Source: Gammaproteobacteria bacterium
GTDB taxonomy: Bacteria > Pseudomonadota > Gammaproteobacteria > Steroidobacterales > Steroidobacteraceae
NCBI GenBank assembly: GCA_020029535.1
Contig: JAIBJM010000050.1
Location: forward strand, 1-39,991
Reading direction: 5' to 3'
DNA length: 39,991 bases
The notes beneath the pieces are model-generated. The model worked only from the letters and a program-made list of their open reading frames with translations. It was not told where the DNA came from and did no database searches. The translations under genes were made by a program, and so were the position numbers. Of this stretch, positions 2,959 to 10,163 are shown piece by piece (the stretch's first letter is position 1; the number at the start of each line of letters is the position of its first letter).

Positions 2959-3290
2959 AGCGCAGCCAAGAGCGCGGGCCGTGGGCGAATCTCTGCTTCG
3001 AGATTGCGGAGCGATGACAGGGCGTCGCGGCGCTCTTGCGTGCCGTGCGCAGCGGTTGAAGGCTTTGACACCAGACTGGCGCGATCACGACGTTTGTCGT
3101 TAGCCCGAGTCCTTACATGAGGTAGAGCATTTCATCGTGCCGAACCACAGCGAGAAGTACAGGACGTTACTCGACCAGAACATGCCGGGCTGGCGCAGCA
3201 TCCGCGACCGCCTCCATGAAGGGCTCGTTGTCAGCGATCGATTAGCGAAAACGCTGCTGTGCGCGGCGAAGCCTGCGGTGGTAAATGGCG
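2959..3290. other. Intergenic stretch between convergent hsdR and DUF2188 gene
   Basis: About 330 bases between two convergent genes. A weak 6-bp hairpin (AATCTC/GAGATT, 2988-3005) just after hsdR lacks a T-tract. A GTG-started frame from 3137 gives some 50 protein-like residues but runs into the DUF2188 gene on the other strand and has no clear ribosome-binding site. I see no supported gene here. It may be degraded accessory DNA. Confidence 0.4.
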
Positions 3291-3536
3291 TTAGTGCTCG
3301 CGGTCTTTCGGCGGATTTGGATCGCTTCCCGGATAGATCGTATCCTTGCTGCGGATCAGCCCGTCGCGTCCTTTGATCGACAGCTCGCCGCCATGCTGGT
3401 TTTGCAGCATCTCGCGCGCGGCATCGACGGCTTCCTTTTGAGTGCCATGCACGCTTGAGGCACGGTCGCTGTCATTGCGCTTGTTGACCCACTCGCCATC
3501 ACGGCGATAAACGGTACGGTCTCTATCTTTGCTCAT
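3291..3536 (-). CDS. DUF2188 small protein
   Basis: An 81-aa hydrophilic, charged protein. Its pattern (V-x-R-R-D-G-E-W-V-N-K near the start, then a stretch ending in Q-K-E-A-V-D-A-A-R-E and a C-terminal segment containing G-R-D-G-x-I-R-S-K-D-T) matches DUF2188, a family of short proteins of unknown function common on mobile elements and in stress loci. The ATG at 3536 is preceded by AAGGA about 8 bases upstream. It starts 27 bases after the stop of the DUF6527 gene and reads the same way, so it is probably the last gene of the ubiquitin-like operon or a hitchhiking neighbour. No catalytic residues are evident. Assignment to the family is by recall of its conserved pattern; a role in the conjugation system is only inference. 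Confidence 0.75.
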   Translation of the reverse strand: MSKDRDRTVYRRDGEWVNKRNDSDRASSVHGTQKEAVDAAREMLQNQHGGELSIKGRDGLIRSKDTIYPGSDPNPPKDREH

Positions 3537-3563
3537 ATTTTCATTCCTTCTCTATCAACACAA

Positions 3564-3956
3564 TCACGCTCGCCACGATCCTTGAATGAAATCGGGCTTC
3601 TTGCCGGTATCGGCGCACCATAAAACTTTTCCGCTTTTGATCCAGAAGTGCGCGTATGAACCTTCCATCTGCCGCACCGAAGGATCAACTGTGGGACGGC
3701 CGAGGAAGTCGGCTCGCACTTGCCAGCGCGGGCGGTGTTTGACTTGAAGTGATAGCTGGATAACGTCACCGTTCCCGCTCGGGCAGAGCAGATACGCCCA
3801 CTTCTGATAGCCGGGTCCGCCGACAACGTAAATCCAGCCCGCCGTCATCTGCTCACGGCCCGGATGATCGGCGACGATCTGCATCAGGAAGTCCGGCTTC
3901 GGAATGAAGCCGAGCCAGACCAGAAGAGAGCGGAGGAGTGCCTGAAACGCTTCCAT
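3564..3956 (-). CDS. DUF6527 protein, candidate Ubl-processing/deconjugating peptidase (BubE-like)
   Basis: A 130-aa protein. After a hydrophobic N-terminal segment (residues 6-18) it shows the DUF6527 layout: a CPSGNGD segment near residue 58, L-S-L-Q, R-P-R-W near 76, a G-R-P-T-x-D-P-S segment near 86, and A-H-F-W-I-K-S-G-K-V-L-W-C near 103. Members of this family are linked to bacterial ubiquitin-like operons, where I recall a proposed deconjugase/peptidase role. Candidate catalytic residues here are the Ser and His of the P-S and S-Y-A-H segments. The chosen ATG lies 2 bases after the JAB-E1 stop (TGA TC ATG), with AAGGA upstream inside the preceding gene, which indicates translational coupling. 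An upstream in-frame start would add 22 arginine-rich residues inside the JAB-E1 gene and is unlikely. Family assignment is good; biochemical function is inferred. Confidence 0.78.
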   Translation of the reverse strand: MEAFQALLRSLLVWLGFIPKPDFLMQIVADHPGREQMTAGWIYVVGGPGYQKWAYLLCPSGNGDVIQLSLQVKHRPRWQVRADFLGRPTVDPSVRQMEGSYAHFWIKSGKVLWCADTGKKPDFIQGSWRA

Positions 3957-3958
3957 GA

Positions 3959-5380
3959 TCAATCGATCCTTCCGAGGAACGGATCGACATCGCCCGCTCC
4001 CCACAAACCATCGCCGCCGCAAATCCGGCAGCTCGCGCCCGGCTGGTGGCCGGGCCGCCTGTCCTCGCCAAGATGAAATTTGCGCACGCGGTTCGCGGCT
4101 GCGCCGTTTTCGCCCTTGAATCCCTGCATCCGGTGAATCAGCTCATTCACCGCCATGCAGGCAAGCTCCGTTGTGAACGTGACCACGGCGGGAGTCGGAT
4201 TACCTTCGCCGACAACATAGGATTCGGCCTTGCGCTGCTCGTACTCTTCCGGGTTCTCGCGCCGCATCGTCTCACTGCGCGCAATCTCGGGATCAATGAC
4301 GCCGCGGCAGAGAAGGCACGTGTGATGCGGCGAGAGAATTGTCACCCGCCCATCGAGCGCCTTCAGCTCCAGCGCATCCTTCTCACCCGGATCAATGGCC
4401 AGGCCGATGTCGATTACGGGGCTGAGGTAGTAGTAAGCGAAACGGTTGAGAAAGAGACGGCCTTCGTGGTCATCGGTGCAGCCGAAAATGATGTCGGAAG
4501 ACCGCAGGACATCGCGGCACCCCGGATCGCCGACCCATGCCTCGATTGGCACAACGCGAATGCCAAGCCCCATTTCGGCAATGGCGTTGGCAACGACTTG
4601 CACTTTTGGCCGCATGGCATCCGCGTCTGCTTGCCGCGATCCATGCAGGCGATTGAGATTGGTCTGATCAACGATGTCGTTATCGATGAGCGCCAACTGA
4701 CCCACGCCCAGCCGCGCGAGCAGCATGGCAACGGCGCTGCCCGTCCCGCCGCAGCCGACGATGGTGACGCGCAAGCGGCGGAGGTCCTGATTGAGCGCGT
4801 GGCCGAAGGCGAGGGCCTGCCGATGAAAGGAGGGCATCGAGACTTCAGCGCCGCGCCCCGGGTAGTGCAGATCGAAGCGCTCGCCGATAACACGCACCGT
4901 GCGCATAGGCTCGTATCCTTTTTTCGAAGGGTGAAGCCATGCGCGCCCTGTCAGGTGGCCGTCAGCGGTCAGGATCACACTCAACATGTTTGTTCCCGCA
5001 CCATTGCGGTTGACGGCGAGCTGTACGAGGTCCGGCTCGTTCGAGTCGTCCTGTGCCGAGAACATCGTCATGCCAGCCGGGTGACTGTGCACAATGCCGA
5101 TGGTCTGCCCCTTTGCAGCGGCCTGCTTGAGCGCGAAAACAAATGACGCGGTTTGCCACGTAATGAGATTTTCCGTCCGTTCGATAACCTGATCGTCGGG
5201 TACGGGAATGATCTTCGCCGAAAGAAATTTTGTATGGGCCTGACGATCCCACGGATCGTGGCGGCTGGATGCCTTGTTGCAGAGGATATAGGCGGCGTGC
5301 TCACAGCCGTCATCGCGGATGAGATGAGTTTTCAACTGATCAAGATGCGCGCGCTGAAGCGTCAAGCTGTAGGTCGTCAT
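3959..5380 (-). CDS. JAB/JAMM-ThiF fusion: E1-like activating enzyme with N-terminal JAMM peptidase
   Basis: A 473-aa fusion. Residues 1-150 are a JAB/JAMM isopeptidase-like domain with an intact metal motif: E27, H98-S-H100-P, seven residues, S108 and D111. Residues 200-420 are a ThiF/MoeB/E1 adenylation domain: G-x-G-G-T-G at 209-214, the acidic D233-x-D235 for ribose/ATP, T-N-L-N-R at 240-244, and two Cys pairs (C355/C358 and C451/C454) fit the structural zinc site. The E1 part would adenylate the C terminus of the neighbouring ubiquitin-like protein and pass it to the E2; the JAMM part would process or remove it. The ATG at 5380 overlaps the E2 stop (ATGA), so translation is coupled and the longer upstream reading is excluded. 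A single adenylation domain fused to JAMM is typical of bacterial, not eukaryotic, E1 systems. Confidence 0.92.
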   Translation of the reverse strand: MTTYSLTLQRAHLDQLKTHLIRDDGCEHAAYILCNKASSRHDPWDRQAHTKFLSAKIIPVPDDQVIERTENLITWQTASFVFALKQAAAKGQTIGIVHSHPAGMTMFSAQDDSNEPDLVQLAVNRNGAGTNMLSVILTADGHLTGRAWLHPSKKGYEPMRTVRVIGERFDLHYPGRGAEVSMPSFHRQALAFGHALNQDLRRLRVTIVGCGGTGSAVAMLLARLGVGQLALIDNDIVDQTNLNRLHGSRQADADAMRPKVQVVANAIAEMGLGIRVVPIEAWVGDPGCRDVLRSSDIIFGCTDDHEGRLFLNRFAYYYLSPVIDIGLAIDPGEKDALELKALDGRVTILSPHHTCLLCRGVIDPEIARSETMRRENPEEYEQRKAESYVVGEGNPTPAVVTFTTELACMAVNELIHRMQGFKGENGAAANRVRKFHLGEDRRPGHQPGASCRICGGDGLWGAGDVDPFLGRID

Positions 5381-5760
5381 GCGGCGGCCTTCTCCAGCGC
5401 ATCTTCGACGCGCTTTATCATCGTCCAGATGCCATCGACACCGGGCCGCCATTCCTTGTTATGGCGCGACCAGCGTTGCCATTTCTGACCTGCGAAGTCG
5501 AGAGCCTGATCCGCCTTCTTGGGATAGGTGTTCGACGGCACAAGCTTCACCCAAGGCGTCAGGTAGAACATGTCCGGCGCGACATCGGGATAGCCCTTCG
5601 GCAGCAGGATCAGAATATCGGCCTTCGCGGCATCGAACCGCCCGTTCGGCAGCGGGCGCTCCTTCAGGATGACGCCTTTCTTGCCATTCTGTTCGACCTC
5701 CTGAAAGGCGATGCCTTTCGAGGTCAGGTACTCAAGGTCTGCTGCCGGGAGAAAACTCAT
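5377..5760 (-). CDS. Prokaryotic E2 family E-like conjugating protein, cysteine-free
   Basis: A 127-aa protein matching the prokaryotic E2 fold family E: an N-terminal strand region, I-L-I-L-L-P-K-G-Y-P-D-V-A-P-D-M-F-Y (about residues 48-66, the E2 Y-P-x-x-x-P signature), then Q-R-W-S-R-H, W-R-P-G-V-D and a C-terminal helix. It should carry the activated ubiquitin-like protein from E1 to the target. It contains no cysteine anywhere, so a classical thioester is impossible; serines in P-S-N-T-Y-P or W-S-R-H are candidate acceptors. The start is the ATG at 5760, four bases after the stop of the ubiquitin-like gene. The same frame runs on upstream to 6012, but that extension only reads the ubiquitin-like gene out of frame and is arginine-rich nonsense. 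It ends by overlapping the JAB-E1 start by four bases. Confidence 0.88.
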   Translation of the reverse strand: MSFLPAADLEYLTSKGIAFQEVEQNGKKGVILKERPLPNGRFDAAKADILILLPKGYPDVAPDMFYLTPWVKLVPSNTYPKKADQALDFAGQKWQRWSRHNKEWRPGVDGIWTMIKRVEDALEKAAA

Positions 5761-5764
5761 TTCA

Positions 5765-6016
5765 CTACCCTTCCGTCGTCGTCTTCTTGCCGGTGAAGAA
5801 TTTTTCCGTGCCCTTCTCGGTGAGGTCCACTTTCTTGTCGTCCTCGATGAGCAGGTCTTCCGGCCCGCGAACGTCCTGCCAGGCGTCGTATGTGCCGGGA
5901 TCAACGCCAGCAAGCTTCTTGATCTCCAGCCCAGTAATAGCCGGCTTCGGCCAGTCATGGTGCTTCTGGTCAACCACGATCTTGAAGGTGTGGCGGCCCT
6001 TGTTTTCTTCACTCAT
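5765..6016 (-). CDS. Ubiquitin-like modifier, multiubiquitin-domain family (single copy)
   Basis: An 83-aa protein with one beta-grasp-like multiubiquitin domain (residues about 9-75: F-K-I-V-V-D, then I-T-G-L-E-I-K-K-L-A-G, then D-L-L-I-E-D-D-K-K-V-D-L, then K-F-F-T-G). Members often hold several tandem copies; this one has one. The C terminus ends T-T-T-E-G, so the last residue is glycine, as needed for adenylation by E1 without further trimming. A GTG six bases earlier (6022) is possible, but AGGAG sits 9 bases from the ATG at 6016 and only 3 from the GTG, so I chose the ATG. It is the first gene of the four-gene conjugation block and has its own candidate promoter. It is the predicted modifier attached to target proteins. 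No cysteines are present. Confidence 0.88.
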   Translation of the reverse strand: MSEENKGRHTFKIVVDQKHHDWPKPAITGLEIKKLAGVDPGTYDAWQDVRGPEDLLIEDDKKVDLTEKGTEKFFTGKKTTTEG

Positions 6017-6086
6017 CGTCACTATCTCCTACACTTGAGTTCGGTACGGAATCGGCGGATAACGCTTTTAAGCCGATCTGCTAATT

Positions 6087-6115
6087 AGCGTACTCAATCG
6101 CGCGGCATGTTGCAA
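6087..6115 (-). promoter_or_regulatory. Candidate promoter/operator of the ubiquitin-like cassette
   Basis: On the minus strand TTGCAA (6115-6110), a 17-base spacer and TACGCT (6092-6087) form a sigma70-like promoter about 70 bases before the ubiquitin-like start. The -10 overlaps AGCGTACT (plus strand 6087-6094), an 8-mer repeated in the XRE gene promoter, and lies against the palindrome GCTAATTAGC (6080-6089). An AACGCT half-site is at 6061-6066. This is compatible with binding by the adjacent XRE regulator. Seen in sequence; function inferred. Confidence 0.55.
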
Positions 6116-6149
6116 GCGAAAAAAACGCCGTCCAAAAATCAATCCTTCG

Positions 6150-6872
6150 TTACTGAGAAAAGAGCGAGCGCGATTGCGCTACGTCGCTCAGGATATTGAG
6201 CTTTGCCAGCCGCACGCGCGCGGCGTCGGCAGAGACTTCGAAACCGGCTTTGATCTCATCGATAAGATGCAAGGCCTCGGGGCTGGTATGGGCGACCGGC
6301 CCATAGATGCCGTGCTTCTCCTGGTAGGCCGCGACGATCCGGTTCACGTGCGTCACCGGCATCAGAATCGCGCCGCAGATATACCCCGCCTGCCATTCCA
6401 TCCAGTCGTACTGATTCGCGTTGAGGATGTCGTCGCGCTTGCAGATTTGCTTGTTGGCGTTGGGATGCGTCTTCAGGAAATCCTTCTGCGGCGGTTCCAT
6501 TTCCCACAGGTAGCCGTGAAACCTCACATGCCCGTATTCATGGGTGAGCGTCGTTCTCAACCTGTTCTTGTAACGCTCATCCCCGGAAAGTTTCTCGGAA
6601 ATCTTTACGGTCGGCTTCTTGCCAAGCCTGAACTCCGTGACGCCCTCGACGTCTGGCCCGAACTCCGTCAGGTCGGCGTAGAGGTCAAGGTCGTCCGTAT
6701 CCTGCTCGATCAGGCGGGTGAGGTCTTCCGTGGACACCGGAAACCGGATTTCGCCGTGACGTGATCGCAGAAACGCGCCGACAATATTTTCGCACTCCCG
6801 GTCAAGTTCACCGGGCTTGTAGTGCGGACGTTGCGAGAACCGCCCCGTCTTATCGGGCACGTACTGAACCAT
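6150..6872 (-). CDS. ImmA/IrrE-family metallopeptidase
   Basis: A 240-aa protein with the zincin motif H111-E-Y-G-H115 and a following E-W-Q-A-G-Y-I-C-G-A-I-L-M-P segment near residue 160, where the family normally supplies the third metal ligand and the L-M-P signature. ImmA/IrrE (COG2856) proteases cleave or inactivate a partner XRE-type repressor in response to DNA damage or other signals, as ImmA does with ImmR in ICEBs1. Here the start ATG overlaps the stop of the XRE gene by one base (TGATG), the classic coupled pair. A 133-base gap holding a promoter separates it from the ubiquitin-like gene downstream. Cytosolic: no signal peptide or membrane segment. Role as derepressor of the conjugation cassette is inference from position and shared promoter motifs. 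Confidence 0.88.
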   Translation of the reverse strand: MVQYVPDKTGRFSQRPHYKPGELDRECENIVGAFLRSRHGEIRFPVSTEDLTRLIEQDTDDLDLYADLTEFGPDVEGVTEFRLGKKPTVKISEKLSGDERYKNRLRTTLTHEYGHVRFHGYLWEMEPPQKDFLKTHPNANKQICKRDDILNANQYDWMEWQAGYICGAILMPVTHVNRIVAAYQEKHGIYGPVAHTSPEALHLIDEIKAGFEVSADAARVRLAKLNILSDVAQSRSLFSQ

Positions 6873-7201
6873 CAGCTTTTGCCTTTCTTGCTCCCGCCGC
6901 GGCGAAACGCCTGCATCGCCTGCGCCACGTCCTTTTCACTCAGCTTCTTGCCGCGAATGTCTTCCGGGAATCTTCCTGCAAGAAAATACAACCAGTCGGC
7001 GTCGATCTCCAATGCCTCGGCGAACTGCTGCACAAGCCGATCCGAAGAGGGGCTGCGCCGGTCGTGTTCAATGTCATTGAGGTACTGCGGCGAGATGGGT
7101 TCGCCGTCATCGCGGGGAATCCGCTCGGCCAAGTCCTTTAAGGCCCAGCCTTTCGCCTTTCTGGCGGTGCTTATGGCTTTTCCAAACGTCGTTTCAGTCA
7201 T
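6872..7201 (-). CDS. XRE-family transcriptional regulator
   Basis: A 109-aa protein with an N-terminal lambda-repressor-like helix-turn-helix: F-G-K-A-I-S-T-A-R-K-A-K-G-W-A-L-K-D-L-A (about residues 6-25) and S-P-Q-Y-L-N-D-I-E-H-D-R-R-S-P-S (about 37-52), followed by a short helical tail rich in lysine. I chose the ATG at 7201, which has GAGGA just upstream; a TTG at 7213 would add four residues. It is the first gene of the leftward block and is coupled to the ImmA-like protease. It probably represses its own promoter, which contains nested inverted repeats, and perhaps the ubiquitin-like promoter, which shares its -10 and AGCGTACT motif. Confidence 0.9.
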   Translation of the reverse strand: MTETTFGKAISTARKAKGWALKDLAERIPRDDGEPISPQYLNDIEHDRRSPSSDRLVQQFAEALEIDADWLYFLAGRFPEDIRGKKLSEKDVAQAMQAFRRGGSKKGKS

Positions 7202-7224
7202 GGTCCTCGGCAATCTGGTCAGTT

Positions 7225-7271
7225 AACGCTAATACGCGGATGAGCGTACTACAGCGTTGTGGAGGTGTAAA
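7225..7271 (-). promoter_or_regulatory. Candidate XRE-immA promoter with nested inverted repeats
   Basis: On the minus strand TTTACA (7271-7266), a 17-base spacer and TACGCT (7248-7243) form a promoter 40 bases before the XRE start. Inverted repeats surround the -10: AACGCT (7225-7230) with AGCGTT (7253-7258), and TACGC (7233-7237) with GCGTA (7244-7248). AGCGTACT at 7243-7250 also occurs at 6087-6094 in the ubiquitin-like promoter. This looks like an autoregulatory operator. Positions are seen directly; binding is inferred. Confidence 0.6.
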
Positions 7272-7625
7272 GAAAGAACTGGACGCCCGCGGCTTTCGCC
7301 GCATCGGGCTCTATTCCGCTTCGATTCACCGAGCCGCATTCCACGTCTCGGCCCATCCGGGTCACGATCCCTGGCGCAAGAAAAAATCGAATGAGCCGCT
7401 GATTGCTCCGGCCCCTTCGGCCCATCCGTCAAGGCAACCCTTCGGGCGGAAATCGCGGGACCGTGACTCGCCGCAAAAAGCGCGGCTGCGTCCGCACCAC
7501 TCCCTTTGCGATTTCCGGCCTGTGACGGATTTCCCCCGCTTGTTTGTTCGCACCCATCGGGGTGCATGCGCACCCCGCTTTCTCATTGCCTGAAGTAGGG
7601 GGCGTCAAGCGAAAGGAAGCGAACC
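7272..7625. other. 354-base region without a supported gene
   Basis: It lies between the divergent XRE gene and the hypothetical gene at 7626. Both strands have open frames of about 115 codons (starting 7240 plus and 7573 minus), but neither has a recognisable ribosome-binding site or known domain, and they mirror each other. It holds small hairpins, such as GCACCC-ATCG-GGGTGC near 7550. It could be a long leader or control region of the mobile element. I see no firm function. Confidence 0.35.
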
Positions 7626-8027
7626 ATGACTAACGAACAAATGTTGCAGAACGCCCTAAGAACCATTGCCGCAATCCCATTGTGGGGAGAGCCGATCACC
7701 AATTCCGAACACGGCGACAAGAGTGAACTCGCCGCAATCGGTGAATACGATCTTGAAGAGGATGCGTATAACCCTTGTTGCAGCGCTGAGTCAGATTGGC
7801 TCAGTCATGCGGTTGAAACGGCCCGCGCAGCGCTGGCAATGATTGAATATGTAGGCGCTATCGATGAAGCGATGAGTCAATTGTTTGGCCTCAACATGTG
7901 GGATGCGGGGATCGAACTGGAGCGTATTGAGCGCGCATATGCGGATGGCGAGACCCCCCAAGACTTTTCTCTTCGCTTCGGCGAGAAATATGGGCTGACG
8001 TTGCGTTCTGAATGGCAATTCCGCTAG
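7626..8027 (+). CDS. Hypothetical acidic protein on mobilizable element
   Basis: A 133-aa acidic protein that I do not recognise. It begins T-N-E-Q-M-L-Q-N-A-L-R-T-I-A-A-I-P and ends in a region with D-G-E-T-P-Q-D-F and R-F-G-E-K-Y-G-L. It has no signal peptide, membrane segment or obvious catalytic motif, and only two adjacent cysteines near residue 50. A strong ribosome-binding site (AAAGGAAG) sits 8-9 bases before the ATG, which makes it likely to be translated. It reads opposite to its neighbours on both sides, the regulator pair and the mobilization genes. Similar small acidic proteins are common cargo or accessory genes of plasmids, but that is context only. Confidence 0.65.
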   Translation: MTNEQMLQNALRTIAAIPLWGEPITNSEHGDKSELAAIGEYDLEEDAYNPCCSAESDWLSHAVETARAALAMIEYVGAIDEAMSQLFGLNMWDAGIELERIERAYADGETPQDFSLRFGEKYGLTLRSEWQFR

Positions 8028-8403: not shown

Positions 8404-9723
8404 TCAGCGTTCCAGCTCTGGGTCGCGATCACGATCATGTTTGCGTGTTTGGAGTCGCTCGTGCTGTCCATGAGCATCGCGAAAATGTTTGCGCAAGTCG
8501 GGTGGCTCTTTGCCAGCCATCTGCATGTAGCCCGCGATGTCGCGGTGAAGCTCTTCAAGCTCCTTAGTGTTTGCCTGCCGTCCCCATTTGATTTGCTGAT
8601 GCAGCGTTCGGCGTTCATCGAGTTGGCGGGAAATCAAACGCTCCTTCTCAGCGCGGTCGCGTTGCACGGATTGCGCCGTCTCGAATTCATTCTGCCGTTT
8701 CGCTTTTGCATGCTGGCCGATCAAGCGGTCCCACAATCCCCGGAATCCTTTCCGAAGTCGCTGGGAGCGCTCTACAGCTTCTCTTGCCGTGCGCTCCTCG
8801 TGAGACTTGTCCAGCGCGGTGCGCTCGGCTCTTTGCCTTTGCACAATCTCCGTTCTGCGAAAGGACAATGACGCAGAAGCTGCGTCGCGACGTTTCTCGA
8901 TTTCTTCCACATGCTGGCGGAGCATGTTCGACATGCGAGAAGAGATTGCGGTCTTTGCTTGCTCGACCGATGGCAGATTGCTGGCATCTCCAAGCCTGCT
9001 ACGGACCTGCTTTGTGCGAACACCGACATACTTGGCAATCGCATAGACTTCGCCGCGATAATCGACGGCGACATAGCCACGCCGGTCGCCGCGCGCCAAA
9101 TAGTAGCCCCGTGCCTGAAGCGCTTGCCGAAAGGCTTTGGGCGAATCCGATATGGACCAGCACTCCTGAAACATGCGTTTGAGCGCCTTCGGATCGTGTC
9201 CGGCGCGCTTGGCTTGTTGCCATTCATGATGCGTGAAATTGACAGGGTCGCGCTCCTTGCTATCGACGAACCCGCGCGGCATCTGCCATCCATGCTCAAG
9301 GTAAAGTTCTTTGGACACATCCCGGAGCTTCAGCTTGAAGTGCGGCAGATTGATGGCCTTCATTTTCTCGGCATCGATCCGCGACCACACGACATGCGCG
9401 TGCCTGCGCCCGTCCTTTTCGTGAAAGACGACGGCTCGGGGCTGGTCGTCTAGGCCGAGCTTCTGTTCGACTGTCTCGATAGCGGCCTCGAAAGTGTCGA
9501 TAGAAACCTTCTCGTTAGGCGGCGGGTTCAAGCTCAAAGAGAAGAGGAACTGCTTGGCACGAGTACCTCGGCTTACCGCATAGGTTTCATGGAACGCCGA
9601 TTTGAGATCGTCCGAGAGAAAGCCGCGCAGCTCGTGAACATGCACATGCTCATTGTCGGTCGTCTTCAGGAGGTGAGCGGCGAGCTGGTTGCCCCCGGCG
9701 CGCTGGCTGCCCTTCAGGATCAT
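8404..9723 (-). CDS. Relaxase / mobilization nuclease
   Basis: A 439-aa protein. The N-terminal 150 residues carry the relaxase signature: H-L-L near 17, a long strand-helix region, and H101 followed by R-R-H108-A-H110-V-V-W, the histidine triad that binds metal for nicking at oriT. The catalytic tyrosine is not certain; Y48 is a candidate. The C-terminal half is a highly charged coiled coil (about 260-439) rich in Arg, Glu and Gln, usual for mobilization proteins. The ATG at 9723 overlaps the stop of the MobC-like gene (ATGA); a start 14 codons earlier lies inside that gene and is less likely. It would nick and pilot the plasmid strand during conjugal mobilization. No transfer (tra/virB) genes are visible, so the element would need a helper. 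Confidence 0.85.
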   Translation of the reverse strand: MILKGSQRAGGNQLAAHLLKTTDNEHVHVHELRGFLSDDLKSAFHETYAVSRGTRAKQFLFSLSLNPPPNEKVSIDTFEAAIETVEQKLGLDDQPRAVVFHEKDGRRHAHVVWSRIDAEKMKAINLPHFKLKLRDVSKELYLEHGWQMPRGFVDSKERDPVNFTHHEWQQAKRAGHDPKALKRMFQECWSISDSPKAFRQALQARGYYLARGDRRGYVAVDYRGEVYAIAKYVGVRTKQVRSRLGDASNLPSVEQAKTAISSRMSNMLRQHVEEIEKRRDAASASLSFRRTEIVQRQRAERTALDKSHEERTAREAVERSQRLRKGFRGLWDRLIGQHAKAKRQNEFETAQSVQRDRAEKERLISRQLDERRTLHQQIKWGRQANTKELEELHRDIAGYMQMAGKEPPDLRKHFRDAHGQHERLQTRKHDRDRDPELER

Positions 9724-10163
9724 CCTTGAAGCCCCAAAGCCTCCAGAAGGGTTTTGCGCAGCCATTGGATTTCGGCGCAGGCTTCCCGGAGAGCCTTTTC
9801 GGTATCCGGGTTGACGGGAAGGGACCCGGAATTCACCGCCTTGGCGAGCTGGTTCAGGTTGTTAGCCAGTCTCGCCTTGCCAAGCTCGCCGAGGAGTTTC
9901 CCGAGGGCCTGATGGTCCTTGACCGGGCGTTTGCGCCTCCTGCGGGGCTTGGTCGGCTTACCATCGAACAGCTTGCCCCGGATATACGCCCCAATGGGCT
10001 GGTCGCCAGCTTCCTGCTCCAGCCTGGCCCGTTCCTCGAAGGTTAGGCGTAGGGAGAACGGCGGAGCGGTCGTTTCGCGTGCGCGGCGGGTTCCGGGGAC
10101 CGAGACCCCTTGGAAGGCCCCAGAGACAGGCAAATTGCCCGGTATGTCGCCGGGGGTCCTCAT
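9720..10163 (-). CDS. MobC-like relaxosome accessory protein
   Basis: A 147-aa basic protein. A ribbon-helix-helix-like segment, P-P-F-S-L-R-L-T-F-E-E-R-A-R-L (about 34-48), is followed by P-I-G-A-Y-I-R-G-K-L-F, a lysine/arginine patch (K-P-R-R-R-R-K-R), and L-A-N-N-L-N-Q-L-A-K-A-V-N, the signature of the MobC/bacterial mobilization family. It would bind near oriT and help load the relaxase. The ATG at 10163 has GGAAGGA about 6 bases upstream. It is coupled to the relaxase downstream by a four-base overlap and its own start overlaps the end of a short frame upstream. The oriT is expected upstream, between about 10,164 and 10,400, though I cannot identify a nick site. Confidence 0.83.
   Translation of the reverse strand: MRTPGDIPGNLPVSGAFQGVSVPGTRRARETTAPPFSLRLTFEERARLEQEAGDQPIGAYIRGKLFDGKPTKPRRRRKRPVKDHQALGKLLGELGKARLANNLNQLAKAVNSGSLPVNPDTEKALREACAEIQWLRKTLLEALGLQG

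What the first reader, a model, noticed from the sequence alone, without database searches (positions are those of the whole stretch)
3291..7201. Complete ubiquitin-like conjugation cassette joined to an XRE/ImmA regulator pair
Seven leftward genes, mostly overlapping, encode repressor, ImmA-like protease, ubiquitin-like modifier, E2, JAB-E1 fusion, DUF6527 and DUF2188 proteins. The middle four have the order and families of bacterial ubiquitin-like (Bub-type) operons described in the literature. What stands out is the regulatory pair directly upstream: ImmA-type proteases remove an XRE repressor in response to stress, which would make protein conjugation an inducible defence response. It sits beside HsdR and mobilization genes, as expected in a defence island.
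Basis: partly seen in the sequence, partly recalled or inferred. Interest (0 to 1): 0.85.

Follow-up and report, generated by a model that had tools for sequence, protein, structure and literature searches.

The report
Bacterial ubiquitin operon under phage-type switch
A bacterial gene cluster that probably tags proteins with a ubiquitin-like protein sits behind a repressor-and-protease switch of a kind also found beside phage genes; the pairing is already known in outline, but its likely DNA switch sites can now be named and tested.

Summary
The seven genes are there. Ubl, Cys-less E2, JAB-E1 fusion and DUF6527 form a Bub operon ("type 6e" of 2006; nearest solved structures Citrobacter BubB/BubCD). 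The XRE-ImmA pair is CapH/CapP-like (AlphaFold model's best PDB match: CapP). It adds that Bub has not been shown to protect against phage.

New here: (1) one predicted operator, TACGCTnATnnGC plus a further half-site, begins with the -10 box 17 bp after a -35, before XRE and again in the 133-nt gap before Ubl. A promoter+operator pattern written from these two sites has no other exact hit in 2.87 Mb; a motif trained on other loci ranks them 1 and 2 in the window region. (2) This ImmA groups with pairs beside phage-type genes that keep the operator, apart from 32 other Bub-linked ImmAs. (3) This clade adds DUF2188, has a one-domain Ubl and has lost Cys62/Cys100 of DUF6527.

Best reading: DNA damage activates ImmA, XRE is cut, both promoters open. 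Binding, induction and defence are untested. Side finding: an ImmA-UvrD-PDDEXK fusion precedes Ubl operons in seven loci.

The parts
7227..7271 (-). Predicted promoter/operator of the XRE gene: -35 TTTACA (7271-7266), 17-bp spacer, -10 TACGCT that is also the start of the operator TACGCTCATCCGCGTATTAGCG (7248-7227)
   Evidence: Pattern hit with 0 mismatches; rank 2 of 31,958 positions with a motif never trained on upstream sites. A TTGACA/TATAAT consensus scan found no promoter here. Binding not tested.
6872..7201 (-). XRE repressor, 109 aa, CapH-like
   Evidence: Pfam HTH_3; PADLOC HTH_VI 1e-10 and capH 9e-8; ISPQYLNDIE stretch invariant in the 11 sequences aligned
6150..6872 (-). ImmA/CapP-like zinc metalloprotease, 240 aa, HEYGH
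   Evidence: Pfam M78; PADLOC capP 5e-8; AlphaFold pLDDT 88.5; best PDB match CapP 7t5t E 1.3e-6, then IrrE/PprI
6071..6115 (-). Predicted promoter/operator of the Ubl operon: -35 TTGCAA (6115-6110), 17-bp spacer, -10/operator TACGCTAATTAGCAGATCGGCT (6092-6071)
   Evidence: Pattern hit with 0 mismatches; rank 1 in the leave-one-group-out scan. No consensus promoter found here either.
5765..6016 (-). Ubiquitin-like modifier, 83 aa, one Multi_ubiq domain, ends ...FFTGKKTTTEG
   Evidence: Pfam 4.5e-20; tail compared; PDB multi-ubiquitin proteins, best E 1.2e-12
5377..5760 (-). E2-like protein (Prok-E2_E), 127 aa, no cysteine, QRWSRH motif
   Evidence: Pfam 3e-48; Citrobacter BubB 9eae E 8.5e-10; sequence
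3959..5380 (-). JAB isopeptidase-E1 fusion, 473 aa
   Evidence: Citrobacter BubCD 9ea4 E 2.4e-45; JAMM and adenylation residues conserved
3564..3956 (-). DUF6527 protein, 130 aa; the family's Cys62 and Cys100 are Asn and Ser here
   Evidence: Pfam 4e-17; alignment of 44 sequences
3291..3536 (-). DUF2188 protein, 81 aa, last gene of the run
   Evidence: Pfam 2e-21; PADLOC PDC-S16 4e-21; the only DUF2188 match in its genome
10..2958 (+). Neighbour: HsdR type I restriction subunit, convergent
   Evidence: Pfam
8404..10163 (-). Neighbours: MobA/VirD2 relaxase (8404-9765) and MobC (9720-10163)
   Evidence: Pfam

Best explanation
A Bub operon (bacterial ubiquitination-like; 2006 type 6e) under a CapH/CapP-like switch that is kin to pairs beside phage genes. 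Resting state: the XRE repressor binds similar operators over the -10 boxes of its own promoter and of the Ubl promoter, so repressor, protease and conjugation genes stay low. Signal: DNA damage or phage attack makes single-stranded DNA, which activates the ImmA/CapP-like protease; it cuts XRE and both promoters open. Output: E1 adenylates the Ubl C-terminal Gly, and the Cys-less E2 helps transfer it to targets by a route that cannot use a Cys thioester on E2; JAB removes it; DUF6527 and DUF2188 are accessories. Shown here: genes, order, paired operator-like sites, family and fold. Inferred: binding, ssDNA trigger, cleavage, conjugation, and whether the result is anti-phage defence or a general stress response.
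For: Families and nearest structures BubCD/BubB. The pair is CapH/CapP-like by PADLOC and fold. The promoter+operator pattern has 2 exact hits in 2.87 Mb, both in the window; the 5 other hits have 2 mismatches. The leave-one-group-out motif, trained only on post-ImmA sites, puts an upstream site in the top 3 in 9 of 13 loci, window rank 2 of 31,958. The same pair sits before Bub in 5 loci, and before other cargo with a recognisable post-ImmA operator retained. Published: CapH+CapP next to Bub, and ssDNA-activated cleavage of CapH by CapP (PMC13373217).
Against: No binding, cleavage or induction data. The upstream operator was not among the top ranks in L098-L100, and in L096 only on the opposite strand. 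PADLOC capH/capP scores are low (about 31 bits), and XRE scores better on HTH_VI; the CapP fold match is moderate (TM 0.52, 18% identity). A consensus promoter scan found none in 3000-7600. The operator core without the -35 is not specific (10 exact genome hits). Post-ImmA seed sites were picked by pattern, so their own rank 1 is partly built in.
Confidence: 0.72

Rival explanations
1. The conjugation cassette is a DNA-damage stress response or homeostasis system, not an anti-phage system; the switch works as described but the output does not stop phages.
For: [quoted passage not shown]
Against: Next to HsdR and mobilization genes; some relatives lie beside a restriction endonuclease, SAVED, DNA methyltransferase or cas6 genes.
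Confidence: 0.4
2. Phage-cued alarm: because XRE and operator resemble those of a group of prophage-like elements, an incoming related phage's own protease or antirepressor triggers Bub, or Bub's XRE silences that phage (homoimmunity).
For: Phage-gene-linked pairs L095 and L097 carry nearly the same post-ImmA operator; the XRE stretch ISPQYLNDIE is invariant across both kinds; the ImmA tree joins them, SH-aLRT 97.
Against: XRE identity to those proteins is only 49-51%; I looked for no such phage in this host; cross-binding untested.
Confidence: 0.15
3. The XRE-ImmA pair is a neighbouring mobile-element remnant that controls itself but not Bub.
For: The same pair occurs with phage-type genes, DUF3892 and another Ubl-like cassette.
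Against: The operator sits at the promoter of the Ubl gene itself (window) or of DUF2188 just before it, in all five Bub loci of this clade.
Confidence: 0.08
4. The E2-like protein is catalytically inactive and the system does not conjugate protein (2006 view), for example it only binds Ubl.
For: E2 has no Cys; PMC1779556 called these E2s likely inactive.
Against: QRWSRH is kept in the 41 E2s aligned (partly by selection); the Ubl tail ends at Gly; the JAB site is kept. The title of Ye et al. [quoted passage not shown]
Confidence: 0.07

Closest known systems
Bub operons (Gong et al. 2025, Ye et al. 2026, both not held and not read; named in PMC13373217); 'type 6e' operons of the 2006 Genome Biology paper (PMC1779556)
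   Same: Ubl, Cys-less E2 fold, JAB fused to E1, metal-binding-type DUF6527 protein
   Different: Ubl here has one domain where 6e usually has two or three (the 2006 table notes a solo Ubl in one species); DUF6527 has lost Cys62 and Cys100; DUF2188 added; E1 keeps CxxC 355/358, absent in Citrobacter BubCD
CapH+CapP regulator pair of CBASS and Bub (Lau et al. 2022, not held; described in PMC13373217)
   Same: Adjacent small HTH repressor and M78 protease upstream of the operon; CapP is the best fold match
   Different: Co-directional with a second predicted promoter after ImmA, whereas 23 of the 29 surveyed pairs are divergent; groups with phage-linked pairs, not with other Bub-linked ImmAs
Prophage/ICE immunity switches of ImmR/ImmA type (name recalled)
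   Same: XRE plus ImmA with an operator; homologues beside integrase, Sak4-like, primase or SSB-like genes
   Different: Cargo here is a conjugation operon; no integrase or phage gene was found beside it
CapK+CapS (PMC13373217)
   Same: DNA-damage controller with sites at its own and the operon promoter, placed before Bub
   Different: Kinase/STAS pair; a CapK/S-like pair precedes Bub in L044, not in the window

Membership tests
Bub (type 6e) operon | Multi_ubiq Ubl ending at a Gly | tested here: met
   Pfam; tail TTTEG, shared by relatives
Bub (type 6e) operon | E2 fold without catalytic Cys | tested here: met
   No Cys in window E2; no Cys column conserved at 80% in the 41 aligned
Bub (type 6e) operon | JAB fused to E1, intact JAMM and adenylation site | tested here: met
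   BubCD match; residues
Bub (type 6e) operon | DUF6527-family gene after the E1 | tested here: met
   Pfam. But the metal signature that the 2006 paper describes for this protein is broken here: Cys62 and Cys100 are replaced, as in L003, L004, L007, L053 and L045; 38 of 44 keep both. 44 of the 50 loci have a DUF6527 hit at all, so I count this as a variant, not as exclusion
Bub (type 6e) operon | Covalent conjugation to targets | not testable with these tools
   Needs biochemistry
CapH+CapP | Adjacent HTH repressor and HExxH M78 protease upstream of the operon | tested here: met
CapH+CapP | Sequence/fold of CapH and CapP | tested here: met
   PADLOC capH 9e-8, capP 5e-8, both about 31 bits (XRE scores higher on HTH_VI, 1e-10); fold best match 7t5t
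CapH+CapP | Repressor site at own and operon promoter | tested here: inconclusive
   Matching predicted sites at both promoters; binding not testable
CapH+CapP | ssDNA-activated cleavage of repressor | not testable with these tools
   Needs biochemistry
Prophage ImmR/ImmA-type switch | Pair placed beside phage genes | tested here: not met
   Not in the window's seven-gene run; met for homologues in L095-L098 and L100 by family hits, L099 only by likeness to L098. Kinship
Bil (ISG15-like) | E2 with catalytic Cys (recalled) | tested here: not met
   Window E2 has no Cys

The most novel reading that the evidence does not exclude
A prophage-type induction switch, operator included, is shared between temperate-phage-like elements and a ubiquitin-like conjugation operon, so the cell reads the same signals that wake prophages; shared operators let the Bub repressor and related phages cross-talk, making the cassette an alarm for a whole group of temperate phages.
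Probability: 0.15. Interest if true: 0.8.

Novelty: new variant of a known kind. Interest (0 to 1): 0.47.

Why it matters
What Bub operons are for is open. Two named 22-bp operator candidates turn the regulatory idea into direct tests (gel shift, reporter, base swaps), and removing the repressor should switch conjugation on at will, which would allow targets to be found. The kinship with phage-linked switches suggests how defence-like operons acquire their triggers.

Tried and rejected
DUF2188 as a YegP relative (YegP homologues follow capK/capS in 57 cases, PMC13373217): the AlphaFold model (pLDDT 77) had no PDB match at E <= 0.001, and YegP was not among the 50 matches listed of 552; dropped. 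DUF6527 against PDB sequences: no match at E <= 1. Viral contigs: 15 stretches matched a pattern, none encodes a relative; phage records: no match. tRNA in the window: none. The operator core alone is not specific: 10 exact hits in the genome, two of them in the window (at up to 1 mismatch 191 hits against 103 for the reversed control); only with -35 and spacing is it specific. A first MoeB alignment used a wrong reading frame and was replaced. The E2 and Ubl profiles merged because some loci fuse the two, so those labels are not separable there. Literature for the ImmA-helicase fusion: searches gave nothing relevant, so I say only that I did not find it. Malformed and not answered: 10, 112, 114. 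Chambers 2024, Ye 2026, Gong 2025 and Lau 2022 are not held and were not read. Seven genomes with weak ImmA matches (E 2e-9 to 5e-4) and five genomes with E2 matches below the cut-off were not followed.

Full report
What is there. Two of six junctions overlap, three have gaps of 27 nt or less, and 133 nt separate ImmA from Ubl. HsdR (10-2958, +), a relaxase and MobC flank the set.

The conjugation genes. Ubl is a single Multi_ubiq domain that ends ...FFTGKKTTTEG. In many relatives the same TTEG is the end of the free Ubl, is followed by a few residues, or runs straight into E2 in fused proteins; more distant ones have other tails. So Gly is the likely conjugating residue, and fused versions would need cutting. 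E2 has no cysteine; in 41 E2s aligned (picked by a WxRWS-like motif, so that motif is partly by selection) 10 have none and no cysteine column reaches 80%. In 48 of the 50 loci the JAB-E1 fusion could be aligned: JAMM residues E27, H98, H100, S108, D111 are kept in 45 of 48 each, and G209, G214, D233, R244, K259, D303 in 48 of 48. Against the MoeB-like protein of the same genome, the MoeB NCAEAG cysteine falls on window Lys384, near Tyr388, which is Tyr in 47 of 48 rows (one gap) (my reading of the alignment); Citrobacter BubCD has Tyr in the place of Tyr388. That NCAEAG holds the active-site cysteine of MoeB is recalled. Nearest solved structures are Citrobacter BubCD (2.4e-45) and BubB (8.5e-10). 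The block matches 'type 6e' of the 2006 paper: polyUbl, inactive E2/RWD-like domain, JAB fused to E1 and a metal-binding protein (PMC1779556, passages).

The regulator pair. XRE hits PADLOC HTH_VI (1e-10) and capH (9e-8); ImmA hits capP (5e-8). In 11 ImmAs aligned, H111, E112, G114, H115 and D156-W160 are invariant. The AlphaFold model (pLDDT 88.5) matches CapP 7t5t best (E 1.3e-6, TM 0.52), then IrrE/PprI including a PprI-ssDNA complex (E 2e-3 to 5e-3).

Survey. I examined 50 Bub loci: the window, all 14 from genome contigs, 15 of 20 non-window E2 matches from the genome search (the 5 left out were below the family cut-off), and 20 plasmid regions that I picked for diversity out of the 60 rows listed in each (124 and 63 records matched). 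Result (recounted): XRE+ImmA pair in 29 (5 co-directional of the window's subfamily, 1 other co-directional, 23 divergent); ImmA domain without detected XRE in 11, of which four are ImmA-helicase loci; no ImmA in 10, two of which have an XRE alone, and among which L044 has CapK/CapS-like and L050 WYL genes. In the 15 genome-search loci, the least biased, the pair is in 5. Loci are not all independent (L004/L007 and L008/L009 are near-identical). 'Without XRE' means no hit to my profile. DUF2188 is in 6 of 50 by profile plus L063 by annotation. In 40 related genomes only 3, the window's among them, have a DUF2188, and the window genome has just this one.

The operator. Upstream of XRE and between ImmA and the next gene lies a site of the form TACGCTnATnnGC followed by a further ATnnGC-like half-site, with the -10 hexamer as its first six bases and a -35-like hexamer seventeen bases upstream. 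A pattern of -35, spacing and core, written to fit the two window sites, has exactly two 0-mismatch hits in 2.87 Mb, both here; five more have two mismatches, and the reversed control pattern has four hits at up to two mismatches. The core alone is not specific (10 exact hits). A motif trained only on post-ImmA sites of the other groups ranks the window's two sites 1 and 2 of 31,958 positions (16 kb, both strands). Across 13 loci (10 groups) an upstream site, never used in training, is in the top 3 on the coding strand in 9 of 13, and on the opposite strand at rank 2 in L096; it is not found in L098, L099, L100. The post-ImmA seeds were chosen by regular expression, so their own ranks are partly built in. 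In 8 divergent loci looked at, other palindromes occur in the shared intergenic region in 7 (none listed for L070); I did not test these against shuffles. A standard consensus scan finds no promoter in 3000-7600; TACGCT is far from TATAAT.

Kinship of the switch. With the window ImmA as query, 14 of 398 phylum genomes match, the window's own included; six are strong (49-54% identity) and seven weak and not followed. The six were fetched as L095-L100. Family hits beside the pair: L095 Cas4-like exonuclease and primase/helicase; L096 phrog_37634; L097 phrog_37634, SSB-like and primase; L098 phrog_37634, Sak4-like and integrase; L100 phrog_37634; L099 resembles L098 by eye. Two plasmids carry the pair with DUF3892 (L093) and with another Ubl-like set including a Mov34/JAB gene (L094). 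All eight keep a recognisable post-ImmA site, L098-L100 with TACGTT. In a quick ML tree of 45 ImmAs (SH-aLRT only, long branches flagged; helicase fusions left out), the five Bub ImmAs of this clade, the two other-cargo and the six phage-linked ones form one group (97), which excludes all 32 other Bub-linked rows; the nearest of those, L046, joins it at 91. The direction of transfer is not resolved.

A clade with its own features. The window, L003, L004, L007 and L053 share the pair, DUF2188, a one-domain Ubl of 83-88 aa and the joint loss of DUF6527 Cys62 and Cys100 (N/S, R/T, S/S, S/S, R/T); 38 of 44 keep both, and L045 (T/M) is the only other without them; Cys58, Ser93 and His103 are invariant.

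What is known already. PMC13373217 (EMBO J 2026; [quoted passage not shown] So the pairing is known. The operator, the phage kinship and the Cys pair loss were not in the passages I read; 'DUF2188' occurs 0 times in that paper, and none of the 25 papers listed of 164 holds it. I have not read the main Bub papers, so any of these details may be in print there.

Side finding. In L048, L049, L069 (L068 split) an ImmA-UvrD-PDDEXK protein of about 1140-1160 aa precedes the Ubl genes (domains shown by Pfam for L048). Before it lie a gene of about 180-207 aa without a common domain and, in L048 and L049, a gene with weak Sigma70 region-4 matches. Searching 299 genomes with only the N-terminal 200 aa of the L049 fusion gave 3 genomes, and all 3 have the same trio before Ubl/E2- and E1-like genes. 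Over these five sigma-like proteins, 4 match Sigma70_r4_2 (best E 3e-5). HExxH is kept in the three fusions checked. This looks like another controller of Ubl operons; I found no report.

Noticed in passing
L048:8691-13435, L049:2362-7166, L069:114-4062, L068:87-4051, L106:7936-12730, L107:7978-13063, L108:7919-12625: ImmA fused to UvrD helicase and PD-(D/E)XK nuclease (split in L068), preceded by a ~200-aa gene in all seven and by a sigma-70 region-4-like gene in five (not checked in L068, L069), directly upstream of Ubl/E2- and E1-like genes in all seven loci and with no XRE profile hit in the first four; a possible unreported controller.
   Followed up: partly
L059:2595-3927, L061:2651-3975, L064:2664-3987, L038:8641-10043: Some divergent controllers of other Bub operons have two extra genes between XRE-ImmA and Ubl; in the annotated plasmids these are a CopG or regulator gene plus a GNAT or hypothetical gene (L038 read by eye).
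   Followed up: no
L063:1215-4010: Bub operon with an AAA ATPase and an S8 peptidase in the divergent upstream place and no ImmA: another peptidase-type neighbour.
   Followed up: no
L060:2741-8094: Two XRE-ImmA pairs flank one Bub operon.
   Followed up: no
L004:6124-6340 and L007:6124-6340: A tRNA-Phe-like sequence, read by eye and not run through a tRNA finder, lies just upstream of the XRE gene, suggesting an integration site.
   Followed up: no
window 7626-8027 (+): 133-aa ORF between the switch and the relaxase gene; no family search was run.
   Followed up: no
L094:7886-10783: Same XRE-ImmA pair before a different Ubl-like cassette: a 172-aa protein without Pfam match, DUF7665, a separate Mov34/JAB gene and a 464-aa protein without Pfam match.
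   Followed up: partly
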